Source of the DNA: Sulfurisphaera javensis
Lineage (GTDB): Archaea > Thermoproteota > Thermoprotei_A > Sulfolobales > Sulfolobaceae
Length of the DNA: 64,000 nt
Reading direction: 5' to 3'
Assembly: GCF_041154675.1 (NCBI RefSeq)
Contig: NZ_AP031322.1
Location: 248,001 to 312,000 of the forward strand
The translations under genes were made by a program, and so were the position numbers. Within the stretch, counting starts at the first letter, position 1. Each line of letters begins with the position of its first letter. This document shows, in pieces, positions 17,202 through 21,008 of the stretch. The notes beneath the pieces were generated by a model. It made no database searches. It worked only from the letters and a program-made list of their open reading frames with translations, and was not told the origin of the DNA.

Positions 17202-17247
17202 GGCCGGAGAATTTTCGTCACCACTCTTATTCTGGCGGTCTCATCAT
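17195..17247 (-). ncRNA. Candidate C/D box sRNA
   Basis: Reading the minus strand, C box ATGATGA (17247-17241) begins at the stop codon of the TldE-like gene; a GC-rich 12-nt spacer (GACCGCCAGAAT) follows, then a weak D' (AAGA), 3 nt, C' GTGACGA (17221-17215), 16 nt and D box CTGA (17198-17195). The local GC content is far above the neighbourhood. The C' and D' boxes are imperfect and the last spacer is long, so this remains a candidate. Confidence 0.42.
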
Positions 17248-18269
17248 TAGAATAATATTACTCTTACTGGCATTAAAACATATGGTGCATAAACTCCATG
17301 GTACTCATCGATAGCAAAAGGCTTAGATGTTTTCGAAATAGCATTAATAAATAAAAGTTCTTGGAATGGAATAGCGATCTCCCTAATCTTTAAACCAATC
17401 CCACCTTTCTCTACGATTTTAGGAGTAATTCTTATGCTATTTTCAACTATTTGTACTGACTCAACTCCATAAATTACTACTCCATCTTTATTTTCATTCA
17501 TCATTTCTTCTAAATTCCAATCTCCAGACTTAATTTCAAGAGTGAAAAAGTCTGGCTCTGGTGGTATTCCTCTTGCATTCCCTGAAGAACCATATTTTGT
17601 ATAAAGCGTACCTAAGTAATCTTGAACAATACCATCTCCAATAAGTTCTTTGCGTTTCGTTAAAACTCCTTCATCATCAAAGGTGCTAAATGCAGGGGAA
17701 ATCTCATTAAGTGGGTTATCTACAATAGTCAATGTTGAAAACTTTTCGTAAAGTTTTAACCTCGGTAAAATACCATTCAGTAACGCTTTAACTGTATAAG
17801 CTATTATAGTCCCAAAAACTTCAGGTGAAAGTAAGGCATTAATTCTTCCACCTATTTGATAATCTCTTGTTATTCTTTTTACGCTCTTAATCTCATTTTG
17901 TAAATAACTGATTATACCGTCTAGATATTGAATTCTTCCTCCAACTTTTAAATACTCTTTTTCAACAATAACCAAATGCTTTACTTCTTTGCATTCATCT
18001 ATTTCTCTTTCAATTTTCTTTATTATTATTTTATCTACATAAGGGGCAAGATTCTCAGCCTTAGTTATAAAGTTCTCAAGATCAACTTTCTCCTCGAAAG
18101 ATTTACAAGTTGAGTACTCCTTTTCCGGTTTATAATCTATTTTATCTCTTTTCAGTAACCATCCTTCTGGTGTTAATGCCATTTCTGCTTTAGTATGTTT
18201 AGTTTCAAAATATTTTCCAGACTTAGTAATAATGATTAAATCCTCCTTAAAAATGAGGTTCTTTATCAT
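17247..18269 (-). CDS. TldD/PmbA (U62) family protein, TldE-like
   Basis: A 340-residue protein recognised by the C-terminal TldD/PmbA block: SPAFSTFDDEGVLTKRKELI, then GIVQDYLGTLYTKYG and SSGNARG. In the family, TldD carries an HExxxH-type zinc site and TldE/PmbA does not. I find no such site here, and the protein is about 100 residues shorter than bacterial members, so it looks like a non-catalytic or divergent TldE-type partner. No TldD partner lies in the window. It ends convergently with the S9 peptidase gene, and a candidate C/D sRNA overlaps its stop. Confidence 0.72.
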   Translation of the reverse strand: MIKNLIFKEDLIIITKSGKYFETKHTKAEMALTPEGWLLKRDKIDYKPEKEYSTCKSFEEKVDLENFITKAENLAPYVDKIIIKKIEREIDECKEVKHLVIVEKEYLKVGGRIQYLDGIISYLQNEIKSVKRITRDYQIGGRINALLSPEVFGTIIAYTVKALLNGILPRLKLYEKFSTLTIVDNPLNEISPAFSTFDDEGVLTKRKELIGDGIVQDYLGTLYTKYGSSGNARGIPPEPDFFTLEIKSGDWNLEEMMNENKDGVVIYGVESVQIVENSIRITPKIVEKGGIGLKIREIAIPFQELLFINAISKTSKPFAIDEYHGVYAPYVLMPVRVILF

Positions 18270-18294: not shown

Positions 18295-18432
18295 TTATAA
18301 TGGTGAAGCTAGGGAATCTTTTACTACACAAGCTACTAATTTACATACCTCTTTACCATTTTCTATTCTACATTCATATAAGCCGTAATTTGTTGGACAG
18401 TAGTATGTCTGTTTTACTGTATAATATCTCAT
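18295..18432 (-). CDS. Four-cysteine microprotein
   Basis: A 45-residue frame starting MRYYTVKQTYYCP and ending KDSLASPL, with cysteines 12, 21, 30 and 35. Support for it being real: a TATA-like AATATATAAA (plus-strand coordinates 18454-18463) is centred about 26 bases before the ATG, giving a leaderless transcript; codon use matches neighbours; and the cysteine spacing suggests a zinc-binding or disulfide fold. No signal peptide is seen. It sits between the TldE-like gene and the coil-rich unknown on the same strand. I do not recognise its family. Confidence 0.6.
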   Translation of the reverse strand: MRYYTVKQTYYCPTNYGLYECRIENGKEVCKLVACVVKDSLASPL

Positions 18433-18470
18433 ATATAATTTTCTGTTTATCCAAATATATAAATATTTGT

Positions 18471-18500
18471 TAATCTGTGTGCATCTATATACACAGATTA
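18471..18500. repeat. Perfect 10-bp inverted repeat
   Basis: TAATCTGTGT and ACACAGATTA face each other across a 10-base loop. The element lies between the 3' end of the coil-rich gene (ends 18506, minus) and the TATA box of the microprotein. It could be an operator upstream of that promoter or an RNA hairpin ending the upstream transcript. Confidence 0.6.
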
Positions 18501-18505
18501 ATTTT

Positions 18506-19483
18506 TTAAAAAACTATAATATCAATAAAATTCGACAATGTAATATTTACAAAATTATCAAGAGTTCCGAATTCTACTATAGAGGGAACTGAGATTTTGA
18601 ACGTAGAAATTCCATGTTCTTTATGAGTAACTACAAGGTCTTGTTCTCTAAGTATAATCACTTGATTGCCAACTAATATTCCAGAGACTTGAACTAAATG
18701 GGGAGAAGTATAATGGCCATATCTTAATTTTAACTTTTCCTCTTTTGTAATTATAAATTCTTTGAATTTATCTCTCATAGATAATATTTTCATGAAATAT
18801 ACTCTATTCCTATCTACAAGTCTTTTAGTTTTCATGATACTCTTTATCTTCTCTTTAACTTCTTCTTCAATCATAGAAAGTTCTTTAACTCTTTTACCTA
18901 ACATCGTATTTATTCTTCTTATTCTTCTTATTTCCTCAAGTACATTATAAAGTTTTTCAATCTCTTCTAATTCTTCATCTGTAGACAAATATTTTCTTAT
19001 AAATTCTTCCCATAAAGTACTTCTTACGTCATTGAGTCCTAAACCTGGAAAATAAGATAAATAGTTTAAGATTTTATCTAGCGAGGAGAAAGTCTTTATT
19101 ACTCTCATTGCAAAATCTCCTTGTATCCTTATTATTTGTCCTTTTTTCAATGAAGTGACTTCCCACTTATTATGAGTAAAACCCATAAAGCTTTTCAGTC
19201 TCTGAAGCCTTTTGTCTTCTCTCTTATTTCCGTCTAAAATAAGTCTAGGATCACCATTTATTAATCTAGCGAATATTTTTCCAGTGGTATCATCAATTCC
19301 CAAAACATAAAAACTCCTAGAAAGAGACATAGGAAAGATAACATAATCTCCAATTTTTTGTGCCTTATCAGAGTAAATTAAAGCAGTTCTTCCTCGGAAA
19401 TAATGATCTTCAGACAGAAAGCAATCTTTCCTACTTTCTAATTTAGAAGGATCGTGATAGAGTAGTTCTTTGCAATCTTCCAT
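18506..19483 (-). CDS. Coil-rich protein of unknown function, linked to TGT-like gene
   Basis: A 325-residue protein I do not recognise. The N-terminal part (1-130) is mixed alpha/beta with IGDYVIFPM and FYVLGIDDTTGKIFARLING, resembling a small beta domain; residues about 165-240 are highly charged and helical (EELEEIEKLYNVLEEIRRIRR and following), probably a coiled coil; the last 80 residues are beta-rich. There is no signal peptide or membrane helix. It starts 8 bases after the stop of the TGT-like gene, so the two form an operon and probably act together. A nucleic-acid role is an inference from that linkage only. Confidence 0.8.
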   Translation of the reverse strand: MEDCKELLYHDPSKLESRKDCFLSEDHYFRGRTALIYSDKAQKIGDYVIFPMSLSRSFYVLGIDDTTGKIFARLINGDPRLILDGNKREDKRLQRLKSFMGFTHNKWEVTSLKKGQIIRIQGDFAMRVIKTFSSLDKILNYLSYFPGLGLNDVRSTLWEEFIRKYLSTDEELEEIEKLYNVLEEIRRIRRINTMLGKRVKELSMIEEEVKEKIKSIMKTKRLVDRNRVYFMKILSMRDKFKEFIITKEEKLKLRYGHYTSPHLVQVSGILVGNQVIILREQDLVVTHKEHGISTFKISVPSIVEFGTLDNFVNITLSNFIDIIVF

Positions 19484-19491
19484 AAGTAATA

Positions 19492-20376
19492 CTATGTATT
19501 ATCCTTTATAAATTGTTTTTTACAATAAGTATCAATTTGATCCTCTATCTCGTTTTTCGAAAGTTTATCTATTTCCTTTGAAATCTTAATTTCCCAAGTT
19601 TCTCCCTCATACTCAGAATTAATCATAACCCATGCGTTAATTAAAGCCCTATTTACCCAATCTGTAAGTATTACTGGATAAGGATATTTAGTCTTTTCAA
19701 GAAATGAATATAAAAATTCAATTTCCTCATCAGAGGCTCTTCTTGCATTCCAAACAATTTTTCTATTTCCAACATATCTTTCTCCCTTTCCCGGAATAAT
19801 TACAAGACCATTAGCACCTTTTATTCTATAAGTTGCAGTATCAACGCTATCTGCATTAAAAAATATTTTTCTCATATAAGGTGAGCCAGCGCCTAAAACA
19901 TGTATTATCTTTATTGATTTTCTTATATAATGGTAAAGAAAGATAACAAATTTCCTTCCCCCTCTGAGAGAAGGGGGAACAATGCCTCCAAATGCTATTA
20001 GGTCAGTATATTGTTTATAAAAGTCAATTGCTCTGTTTATATCTTCTATGTTATACCCATGAATTACTGGAATTACTTTAATTTCTTTTTCATAGAAGTA
20101 TTCAAAATGCTTGAAATTTCTCTCGTCCATTCTTTGACAAGGCATTGATGGAATATCTAAATTTATGTAAGCCTCGGCATTCAGTATCTTGTATTTCTTT
20201 TCTATTTCTTCTGGGTTTAATGGAATTCCTTTTTTCATAATTTGATATCCACCAGAGTCAACCCAAGTTCTATTCTTCCAAGGTATGGAATCCCATCTTA
20301 ATTGGTTAATCATAATTGGAGATCCAAATTCCCAAACTGGAATCTTCAAATCTTGTACTCCAAGAAAAACATCCAT
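19492..20376 (-). CDS. tRNA-guanine transglycosylase (TGT)-superfamily protein
   Basis: A 294-residue TIM-barrel protein of the TGT superfamily. DSGGYQ (residues 40-45) matches the DSGG[FY]Q substrate loop, AFGGIVPP (about 128-135) fits the GG loop, and SVDTATY places a conserved Asp179 where archaeosine TGT has FDSASY with its nucleophile. The CxCxxC zinc motif and the C-terminal PUA domains of archaeosine TGT are absent, and the protein is about half that length. It could be a catalytic-core TGT for tRNA or a DpdA-like enzyme inserting a 7-deazaguanine. It shares its promoter region with the divergent ArcS-like gene. Confidence 0.72.
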   Translation of the reverse strand: MDVFLGVQDLKIPVWEFGSPIMINQLRWDSIPWKNRTWVDSGGYQIMKKGIPLNPEEIEKKYKILNAEAYINLDIPSMPCQRMDERNFKHFEYFYEKEIKVIPVIHGYNIEDINRAIDFYKQYTDLIAFGGIVPPSLRGGRKFVIFLYHYIRKSIKIIHVLGAGSPYMRKIFFNADSVDTATYRIKGANGLVIIPGKGERYVGNRKIVWNARRASDEEIEFLYSFLEKTKYPYPVILTDWVNRALINAWVMINSEYEGETWEIKISKEIDKLSKNEIEDQIDTYCKKQFIKDNT

Positions 20377-20399
20377 AGAGAATTATGGGTAACACCAGG

Positions 20400-20405
20400 T
20401 TTAAA
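20400..20405. promoter_or_regulatory. Possible shared TATA box for divergent TGT-like and ArcS-like genes
   Basis: The self-complementary TTTAAA is centred about 26.5 bases from the minus-strand ATG at 20376 and 29.5 bases from the plus-strand ATG at 20432. A single symmetric TATA element could serve both genes of this 55-bp divergent spacer. Confidence 0.45.
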
Positions 20406-20431
20406 GGTATTACTAATATAATATTTTTGCC

Positions 20432-20980
20432 ATGCAATGTCCTCCACTTCATGGTGAACCAATTGTAAAGAAAGATGGGGAGGATCCTTTCAAACATCCT
20501 GTTGTGAGAAAGTGGCATGAAATACTTCTAAATGAATGGAAATCTGAAAAAGAGTACGCTATTCTTCTTCCATGTACGTCAGTAAAGCCTTATTATCTTT
20601 CTGCTACGCATAAGTTAGCTTATTCAATTATGAAAGGCTTTGAAGATAAGATTCAGTTTTATTCTGTATCAGAACCAATGTTGTTAGTACCTAGGGAATA
20701 TGAGGATTGTTACCCTTTCAATTCTTATGATTATCCCCCATCTAAAATGACTATGGAAGAGAAGGAAGAGTTTGTTGAATTATTAAGCAAAGCCCTTTTA
20801 AAAGTTTCAAAAATGCACTCACATATTGTAGCAATTTTACCAAAACATCATTATCAGATAGTGAAAAGAGCATCTGAGTTAGTTAATGTTAATGTGGAAT
20901 TGCATCCTTACGGTAGGTTAGCATTTAAAACTATAGGAGAAGTATTGAATAATGTGATGATGAGAGCCCGCCACACTTAG
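20432..20980 (+). CDS. ArcS core-like (DUF5591-type) protein
   Basis: A 182-residue protein resembling the core domain of archaeosine synthase ArcS. LLPCTSVKPYYLSATH (from residue 45, Cys48, Lys52, Pro53) matches the PCSxxKPYSxSxSH motif, and SEPMLLVPREYEDCYPFNSYDYPP matches the family block with VPRELE and YD-P. ArcS acts on preQ0 in tRNA; here the flanking catalytic, zinc and PUA parts are missing. Divergence from a TGT-superfamily gene over only 55 bp supports a joint role in 7-deazaguanine chemistry. Its 3' end overlaps a candidate C/D sRNA. Confidence 0.68.
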   Translation: MQCPPLHGEPIVKKDGEDPFKHPVVRKWHEILLNEWKSEKEYAILLPCTSVKPYYLSATHKLAYSIMKGFEDKIQFYSVSEPMLLVPREYEDCYPFNSYDYPPSKMTMEEKEEFVELLSKALLKVSKMHSHIVAILPKHHYQIVKRASELVNVNVELHPYGRLAFKTIGEVLNNVMMRARHT

Positions 20981-21008
20981 TGATGAAGAGAAAATGATTA
21001 AAAACTGA
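20957..21008 (+). ncRNA. Candidate C/D box sRNA overlapping the ArcS-like stop
   Basis: C box ATGATGA (20957-20963), 12-nt GC-rich spacer GAGCCCGCCACA, D'-like CTTA (20976-20979), C' GTGATGA (20980-20986), 18 nt and D box CTGA (21005-21008). The first guide has exact archaeal spacing; the second is AT-rich and long, so only the D' guide looks functional. The boxes lie across the last codons and stop of the upstream gene. Confidence 0.5.

What the first reader, a model, noticed from the sequence alone, without database searches (positions are those of the whole stretch)
18295..21008. TGT-superfamily and ArcS-core-like genes share a bidirectional promoter beside a coil-rich unknown
A short TGT-fold protein (DSGGYQ and SVDTATY present, CxCxxC zinc motif and PUA domains absent) forms an operon with an unrecognised coil-rich protein and diverges from an ArcS-core-like protein (LLPCTSVKPY motif) over 55 bp that contain one symmetric TTTAAA at TATA distance from both starts. 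Known archaeosine enzymes are larger and carry zinc and PUA domains. The trio could be a minimal 7-deazaguanine route, either a crenarchaeal tRNA pathway or a DpdA-like DNA modification. Motifs are seen; the pathway is inference.
Basis: partly seen in the sequence, partly recalled or inferred. Interest (0 to 1): 0.72.

Follow-up and report, generated by a model that had tools for sequence, protein, structure and literature searches.

The report
Archaeal DpdA-ArcS DNA-modification gene pair
Two neighbouring genes in a heat-loving archaeon look like the two halves of an enzyme route that swaps guanine in DNA for a 7-deazaguanine, a pair that also sits in Sulfolobus viruses and, in related archaea, beside DNA-translocase and nuclease genes, as if it were the self-marking half of an unrecognised restriction system.

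Summary
The observation largely holds. The TGT-like protein (window 19492-20376, -) has a confident TGT fold (Z 20 to ArcTGT) with both catalytic Asp motifs and no zinc or PUA part. It falls in the same viral family as phage 9g DpdA, a proven DNA enzyme. The divergent protein (20432-20980, +) is an ArcS-core (DUF5591). The coil protein is a genus-local bystander. The genome has a separate full-length ArcTGT and a Gat-QueC-like protein but no detectable RaSEA, so the pair is not needed for tRNA archaeosine.

Across 165 Thermoproteota genomes, 45 of 47 with this DpdA-like gene carry the same distinct ArcS class, against 1 of 118 without it (that one has a DpdA remnant). STSV1/2/4 viruses carry the same pair as overlapping genes. 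In nine Sulfolobaceae genomes the pair runs into HerA, a 1000-aa ATPase, a coil protein and NurA. That ATPase occurs in exactly the same 18 of 31 genomes. A Desulfurococcales cluster repeats DpdA-ArcS-NurA-HerA-ATPase.

Best reading: a 7-deazaguanine DNA self-marking pair, probably coupled to a HerA/NurA restriction module and carried by viruses as a shield. Chemistry and restriction role are inferred. New variant of a known kind.

The parts
19492..20376 (-). DpdA-like (TGT-superfamily) protein, 294 aa, catalytic domain only; D40 (DSGGYQ) and D179 (SVDTATY) are the predicted catalytic pair
   Evidence: AlphaFold pLDDT 92.3 and fold match to ArcTGT/TGT; phrog_887 E 1.6e-35, the family that holds phage 9g DpdA; profile match to 9g DpdA E 1e-11; dN/dS about 0.07 against one congener, dS saturated for two
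20432..20980 (+). stand-alone ArcS-core (DUF5591) protein, 182 aa, PCTSVKPY motif; predicted to convert the preQ0 base after insertion
   Evidence: PF17884 72.5 bits, phrog_34505 E 6e-75, 63-67% identity to STSV1/2/4 proteins; 'DpdA-linked' ArcS class distinct from the RaSEA-linked class
20377..20431 (.). 55 bp divergent intergenic region with TTTAAA at 20400-20405
   Evidence: congeners have TTTATA here and a second box near the ArcS-like start, so a shared symmetric box is not conserved
18506..19483 (-). coil-containing protein of unknown fold, 325 aa; neighbour, judged not to be part of the system
   Evidence: found in 8 of 31 family genomes, with 4 copies in this genome, three of them at unlinked places; model pLDDT 89 without a PDB match; absent from viruses searched

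Best explanation
The divergent pair is a host DNA-modification system. The DpdA-like enzyme exchanges guanine in DNA for preQ0, made by the host FolE/QueD/QueE/QueC route. The stand-alone ArcS-core protein then elaborates the nitrile, giving deoxyarchaeosine or a lysine (preQ0-Lys type) adduct. The mark labels self DNA, and in Sulfolobaceae it is probably read by a HerA-ATPase-coil-NurA module that attacks unmarked DNA. That module is directly downstream of the pair in sister genera and at 1.61 Mb in this genome. Spindle-shaped STSV viruses (whole pair) and rudiviruses (DpdA only) carry the modification half, presumably as a shield. Shown here: fold, catalytic motifs, family membership, obligate co-occurrence of the pair, viral copies, and linkage and co-occurrence with HerA/NurA/ATPase. 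Inferred: DNA as substrate, the chemical product, the restriction role.
For: TGT fold. Same family as phage 9g DpdA, and DpdA inserts preQ0 in phage DNA (PMC6884629). A separate ArcTGT and a Gat-QueC-like protein cover tRNA archaeosine. Pair co-occurrence is 45/47 versus 1/118 genomes. The pair is closely linked in 18/18 Sulfolobaceae genomes, in three gene arrangements and three genomic places, with one 2.3-kb separation. STSV1/2/4 have the pair as overlapping genes, and the viral DpdA branch lies within the Sulfolobaceae clade. Pair>HerA>ATPase>coil>NurA occurs in nine genomes, and the ATPase is found in exactly the same 18/31 genomes. Independent DpdA>ArcS>NurA>HerA>ATPase cluster L187, with HerA grouping with the Sulfolobaceae module HerA. 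DpdA/HerA>NurA>PAPS-reductase>ArcS cluster in L156, and HerA-NurA-ArcS in L160.
Against: No chemical data. In Ignisphaera and Pyrodictiaceae the two genes are unlinked, lie in housekeeping contexts and show no HerA/NurA beside them, so the restriction half is not universal. The Sulfolobaceae co-occurrence with the ATPase covers only 5 versus 6 genera (p about 0.002 by genus) and those genera may be related. The HerA next to DpdA in Thermoproteaceae is close to canonical repair HerA. T. kodakarensis ArcS needs RaSEA for lysine transfer (PMC11298593), and no RaSEA homologue was found in the Sulfolobaceae listed.
Confidence: 0.6

Rival explanations
1. The pair modifies an RNA other than, or in addition to, tRNA G15 (another tRNA position or rRNA), and viruses use it to tune host translation.
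For: Cellular archaeal TGT and ArcS enzymes described in the papers read act on RNA (PMC11298593); the genes are stable, under purifying selection and unlinked to defence genes in Ignisphaera and Pyrodictiaceae.
Against: No PUA or zinc/tRNA-binding part; closer in profile comparison to phage 9g DpdA than to the genome's own ArcTGT; recurrent linkage to the DNA translocase/nuclease pair HerA-NurA; carried by DNA viruses. Archaeosine in S. acidocaldarius tRNA is reported (PMC11298593), while DUF5591 was not found in that genome (control).
Confidence: 0.18
2. The pair is a domesticated viral anti-restriction cassette whose DNA mark protects against other restriction or superinfection; the HerA-NurA linkage is incidental.
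For: Close STSV homologues with the same gene order as in several host genera; modification-only copies in viruses; HerA-NurA absent beside the genes in several lineages.
Against: The gene pair is old and broad in Thermoproteota and Njordarchaeota, and viral sequences nest inside or beside the Sulfolobaceae branch. ATPase co-occurrence 18/18 versus 0/13; same HerA subfamily beside the pair in distant L187.
Confidence: 0.15
3. The ArcS-core acts on free preQ0 or on the nucleotide pool before insertion, so DpdA inserts an already modified base.
For: ArcS transfers lysine to preQ0 nucleoside and 5'-nucleotide in vitro (PMC11298593); for Gat-QueC in phage the order of steps is unknown (PMC6884629).
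Against: In the archaeal tRNA routes described, ArcTGT inserts preQ0 first and it is modified afterwards (PMC11298593, PMC6884629).
Confidence: 0.07

Closest known systems
Phage DpdA (Enterobacteria phage 9g, PMC6884629)
   Same: Short TGT-fold protein, same PHROG family, aligned catalytic Asp motifs
   Different: Chromosomal in Thermoproteota, partnered with a stand-alone ArcS-core instead of a Gat-QueC gene cluster
DpdA2 + ArcS of Vibrio phage nt-1 (PMC6884629: dPreQ0, dG+, dADG in DNA)
   Same: A DpdA-class enzyme together with an ArcS homologue
   Different: Viral, with its own preQ0 genes; nt-1 DpdA2 was reported as not detected from 9g DpdA by PSI-BLAST, whereas this one shares the 9g family
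ArcTGT / ArcS / RaSEA tRNA archaeosine pathway
   Same: Homologous catalytic domains and the same precursor
   Different: No zinc, PUA or RaSEA; the genome has its own ArcTGT; the ArcS class is distinct from the RaSEA-linked class
Bacterial Dpd modification-restriction island
   Same: Logic of DpdA marking plus linked restriction genes
   Different: ArcS-core where DpdC (DUF328) would act; HerA-ATPase-coil-NurA instead of the bacterial dpd restriction genes
BREX-related capture (BRC) systems with HerA/FtsK and TGT (PMC12839542)
   Same: HerA translocase plus TGT homologue plus ATPase
   Different: No PglZ, DUF6079 or DUF4007 hit in the modules scanned; NurA nuclease and ArcS-core present, neither mentioned in that paper
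DndFGH / HerA-anchored defence
   Same: HerA resembles DndH weakly (E 3e-6 to 7e-9)
   Different: No phosphorothioation genes in the Sulfolobaceae modules scanned; a PAPS-reductase-like gene appears only in some other lineages

Membership tests
DpdA (DNA preQ0 transglycosylase) | TGT-type catalytic fold | tested here: met
   Z 20.2 to 1iq8 over 260 residues, Foldseek E 7e-10
DpdA (DNA preQ0 transglycosylase) | Both catalytic Asp motifs | tested here: met
   D40 and D179 invariant in 24 relatives, aligned with the DSGAYQ and DSFDSASY motifs of ArcTGT and with 9g DpdA
DpdA (DNA preQ0 transglycosylase) | Matches the viral family that holds experimentally studied 9g DpdA | tested here: met
   phrog_887 E 1.6e-35; 9g DpdA hits the same family at 2e-98
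DpdA (DNA preQ0 transglycosylase) | Conserved His of the 9g-type DpdA (position 196 in the literature) | tested here: inconclusive
   Invariant H106 aligns with a His of 9g DpdA, but the published numbering was not checked
DpdA (DNA preQ0 transglycosylase) | Inserts preQ0 into DNA | not testable with these tools
   needs LC-MS/MS or an in vitro assay
ArcTGT (tRNA) | CxCxxC zinc site and PUA/C-terminal domains | tested here: not met
   294 aa, two Cys; no zinc-type Cys columns; TgtA model 16 bits against cut-off 350
ArcS (archaeosine synthase alpha) | DUF5591 core | tested here: met
   72.5 bits, cut-off 26; profile hit to AF0587 structure 2q07 E 2e-12
ArcS (archaeosine synthase alpha) | Full-length multi-domain ArcS over the curated cut-off | tested here: not met
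   182 aa; 70.2 bits against cut-off 440
ArcS (archaeosine synthase alpha) | RaSEA partner in the genome | tested here: not met
   TIGR01210 gives no match at E 1e-3 in the window genome or any Sulfolobaceae row shown
Bacterial Dpd island | DpdB and DpdC plus restriction genes DpdD-K | not tested
   no whole-genome search for DpdB/DpdC was run; none among the scanned neighbours
BRC system | PglZ, DUF6079, DUF4007 and STAND beside HerA and TGT | tested here: not met
   Pfam scans of module proteins gave HerA, NurA and P-loop ATPase only

The most novel reading that the evidence does not exclude
Thermoproteota carry a previously unrecognised DNA restriction-modification system in which DpdA plus a stand-alone ArcS-core write a 7-deazaguanine mark (possibly a new DNA base such as a preQ0-lysine adduct, since no RaSEA is found in Sulfolobaceae) and a HerA-ATPase-coil-NurA machine destroys unmarked DNA, with STSV and rudiviruses carrying the writer genes to pass as self.
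Probability: 0.4. Interest if true: 0.88.

Novelty: new variant of a known kind. Interest (0 to 1): 0.68.

Why it matters
It would extend 7-deazaguanine DNA marking from bacteria, phages and a few archaeal viruses to the chromosomes of many hyperthermophilic archaea, give ArcS a DNA role in cells, assign a possible purpose to extra HerA-NurA copies in Sulfolobales, and explain why rudiviruses and STSV viruses carry 'queuine tRNA-ribosyltransferase' genes. All of this is directly testable by nucleoside mass spectrometry.

Tried and rejected
Coil protein as third pathway member: rejected. Shared symmetric TATA box as a conserved element: rejected. Need for the pair in tRNA archaeosine: not supported. 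PDB sequence search with the TGT-like profile found nothing, so only fold comparison identified it. Rfam and tRNA scans of the window were empty. HerA adjacency in Thermoproteaceae/Caldivirga was down-weighted after a tree placed those HerA near canonical repair HerA. Homology of the L187 1314-aa ATPase to the Sulfolobaceae 1018-aa ATPase is only suggestive, limited to the P-loop region (prob 26, E 7e-4). STSV1 DNA being 'modified in an unusual fashion' is recalled from Xiang et al. 2005 (J Virol); the paper is not held, so it is not used as evidence.

Full report
What was checked. The window lies at 248001-312000 of a single 2,569,661-base chromosome. It belongs to a family of 31 held genomes, labelled Sulfolobaceae in matching public records; the genus is probably Sulfurisphaera, which is my inference from genome size and not tested.

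The DpdA-like protein. Pfam TGT does not reach significance, but PHROG family 887 matches at 1.6e-35. AlphaFold on a 24-row alignment gives pLDDT 92.3 and pTM 0.90. Foldseek's best match is P. horikoshii ArcTGT (E 7e-10), and VIA-align gives Z 20.2 to it and 20.6 to human TGT, with all 50 rows being TGTs. Invariant residues across 24 relatives include D40-S-G-G, Q45, D74, H106, G130-G131, H159, S177, D179, R184, K186, E199, R243 and N247. D40 and D179 align with the DSGAYQ and DSFDSASY motifs of the genome's own ArcTGT. The protein has two cysteines, so no zinc site. DpdA of phage 9g hits the same PHROG (2e-98) and aligns with the profile at E 1e-11, better than ArcTGT at 7e-8.

The ArcS-core protein. 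DUF5591 at 72.5 bits, and a profile hit to the solved AF0587. In Thermoproteota, stand-alone ArcS cores fall into two cleanly separated classes by HMM score. One sits beside or fused with a RaSEA-like radical-SAM gene and scores 138-421 bits on its own model and 47-80 on the other. The other class is the one in the window and scores 73-235 bits on its own model against 12-57. The window class occurs in 45 of 47 genomes with the DpdA-like gene and in 1 of 118 without it. The two misses are MAGs of 82-86% completeness, and the single exception carries a 3' remnant of the DpdA-like gene (Fisher p about 1e-36 ignoring relatedness).

tRNA archaeosine does not need them. The genome encodes a 498-aa ArcTGT with CSCPVC. 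A Gat-QueC-sized protein (QueC hit in a 463-511 aa frame) occurs in 30 of 31 family genomes, with a shorter QueC in the remaining incomplete one. RaSEA gives no match in the window genome or in the other Sulfolobaceae listed. Twelve family genomes lack both genes.

Genome context. In 12 genomes the pair lies at one syntenic place, in 11 of them as DpdA>ArcS on one strand with overlapping or touching genes; in the twelfth, G016, the genes are split by 2.3 kb and ArcS is inverted. In the window genus it is divergent at another place. In a third genus it is ArcS>DpdA, followed by a NurA-domain gene. So linkage survived rearrangement. Substitution rates show purifying selection where dS was not saturated (omega 0.07-0.12). 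The coil protein is adjacent only in the window genus and has unlinked paralogues.

HerA/NurA. In nine genomes the pair continues into HerA (PF01935), a roughly 1018-aa P-loop ATPase, a 231-aa coil protein and NurA (PF09376). The ATPase is in exactly the 18 genomes with DpdA, and nowhere else in 165 genomes apart from weak P-loop-type hits. In the window genome this module is at about 1,606,544-1,612,620. By genus the association is 5 of 5 against 0 of 6 (p 0.002), which is modest. A Desulfurococcales contig, L187, has DpdA>ArcS>NurA>HerA>1314-aa ATPase, and its HerA groups with the Sulfolobaceae module HerA (91/95 support). In another lineage, L156 has DpdA divergent from HerA>NurA>PAPS-reductase>ArcS, and L160 has HerA-NurA near ArcS. 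HerA genes number 3-13 per genome. HerA within three genes of DpdA in about 6 of 15 lineages would be unlikely by chance (roughly 5e-7), but lineages were defined after the fact and two of the six have canonical-like HerA. Ignisphaera and Pyrodictiaceae show no such linkage.

Viruses. STSV1, STSV2 and STSV4 carry the pair as overlapping genes (53-54% and 63-67% identity). Rudiviruses carry only the DpdA-like gene. In the tree the STSV branch lies inside the Sulfolobaceae group and rudiviruses are sister to it; the exact STSV position is weakly supported. Hutinet et al. 2019 (PMC6884629) already counted 2 Bicaudaviridae and 12 Ligamenvirales among viruses with DpdA or related genes, so the viral side is not new.

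Mechanism. Shown: fold, motifs, families, co-occurrence, linkage. Inferred: DpdA exchanges G for preQ0 in DNA; ArcS-core adds a nitrogen donor to the nitrile; the mark is read by HerA-ATPase-NurA. Because T. kodakarensis ArcS transfers lysine and RaSEA then releases archaeosine (PMC11298593), the absence of a detectable RaSEA in Sulfolobaceae leaves a stable preQ0-lysine-type base possible, but equally direct amidation.

Novelty. DpdA, ArcS in phage nt-1, and TGT beside HerA in BREX-related capture systems (PMC12839542) are known. I found no description of the chromosomal archaeal DpdA-ArcS pair with HerA-NurA in the library searched; papers outside that library were not searched.

Noticed in passing
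L230 (G113), L217, L218, L220 and L221-L225: In several Thermoproteota families an ArcS-core gene lies beside, or fused in one 450-500 aa frame with, a RaSEA-like radical-SAM domain, suggesting a crenarchaeal ArcS-RaSEA tRNA route.
   Followed up: partly
L075 9295-10051 (G010): A genome with an intact ArcS-like gene but only a 3' remnant of the DpdA-like gene and no HerA-linked ATPase: a natural decay case.
   Followed up: partly
window 18506-19483; L044-L051: The coil-containing protein family has 4 copies in the window genome, one beside a Cas6-like ORF (L050 434-1156); confident model, no PDB fold match.
   Followed up: partly
L148 1944-2855, L156 4554-5444, L186, L278: PAPS-reductase/DndC-like genes adjacent to DpdA-like or ArcS-like genes in three lineages; possible link with sulfur-based DNA modification.
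   Followed up: no
L064 8357-8953 and L075 8007-8624: A Holliday-junction-resolvase-related endonuclease (PF10107) gene flanks the ArcS-like gene in two genera, hinting at transfer of the cassette between them.
   Followed up: no
L055 and L057: In STSV1/2 the pair lies downstream of thyX and near a virus-encoded DNA methyltransferase, so viral DNA may carry more than one modification.
   Followed up: no
window 17247-18269: The neighbouring gene is a PmbA/TldD C-terminal-domain protein of only 340 aa, shared next to the cassette within the genus.
   Followed up: no
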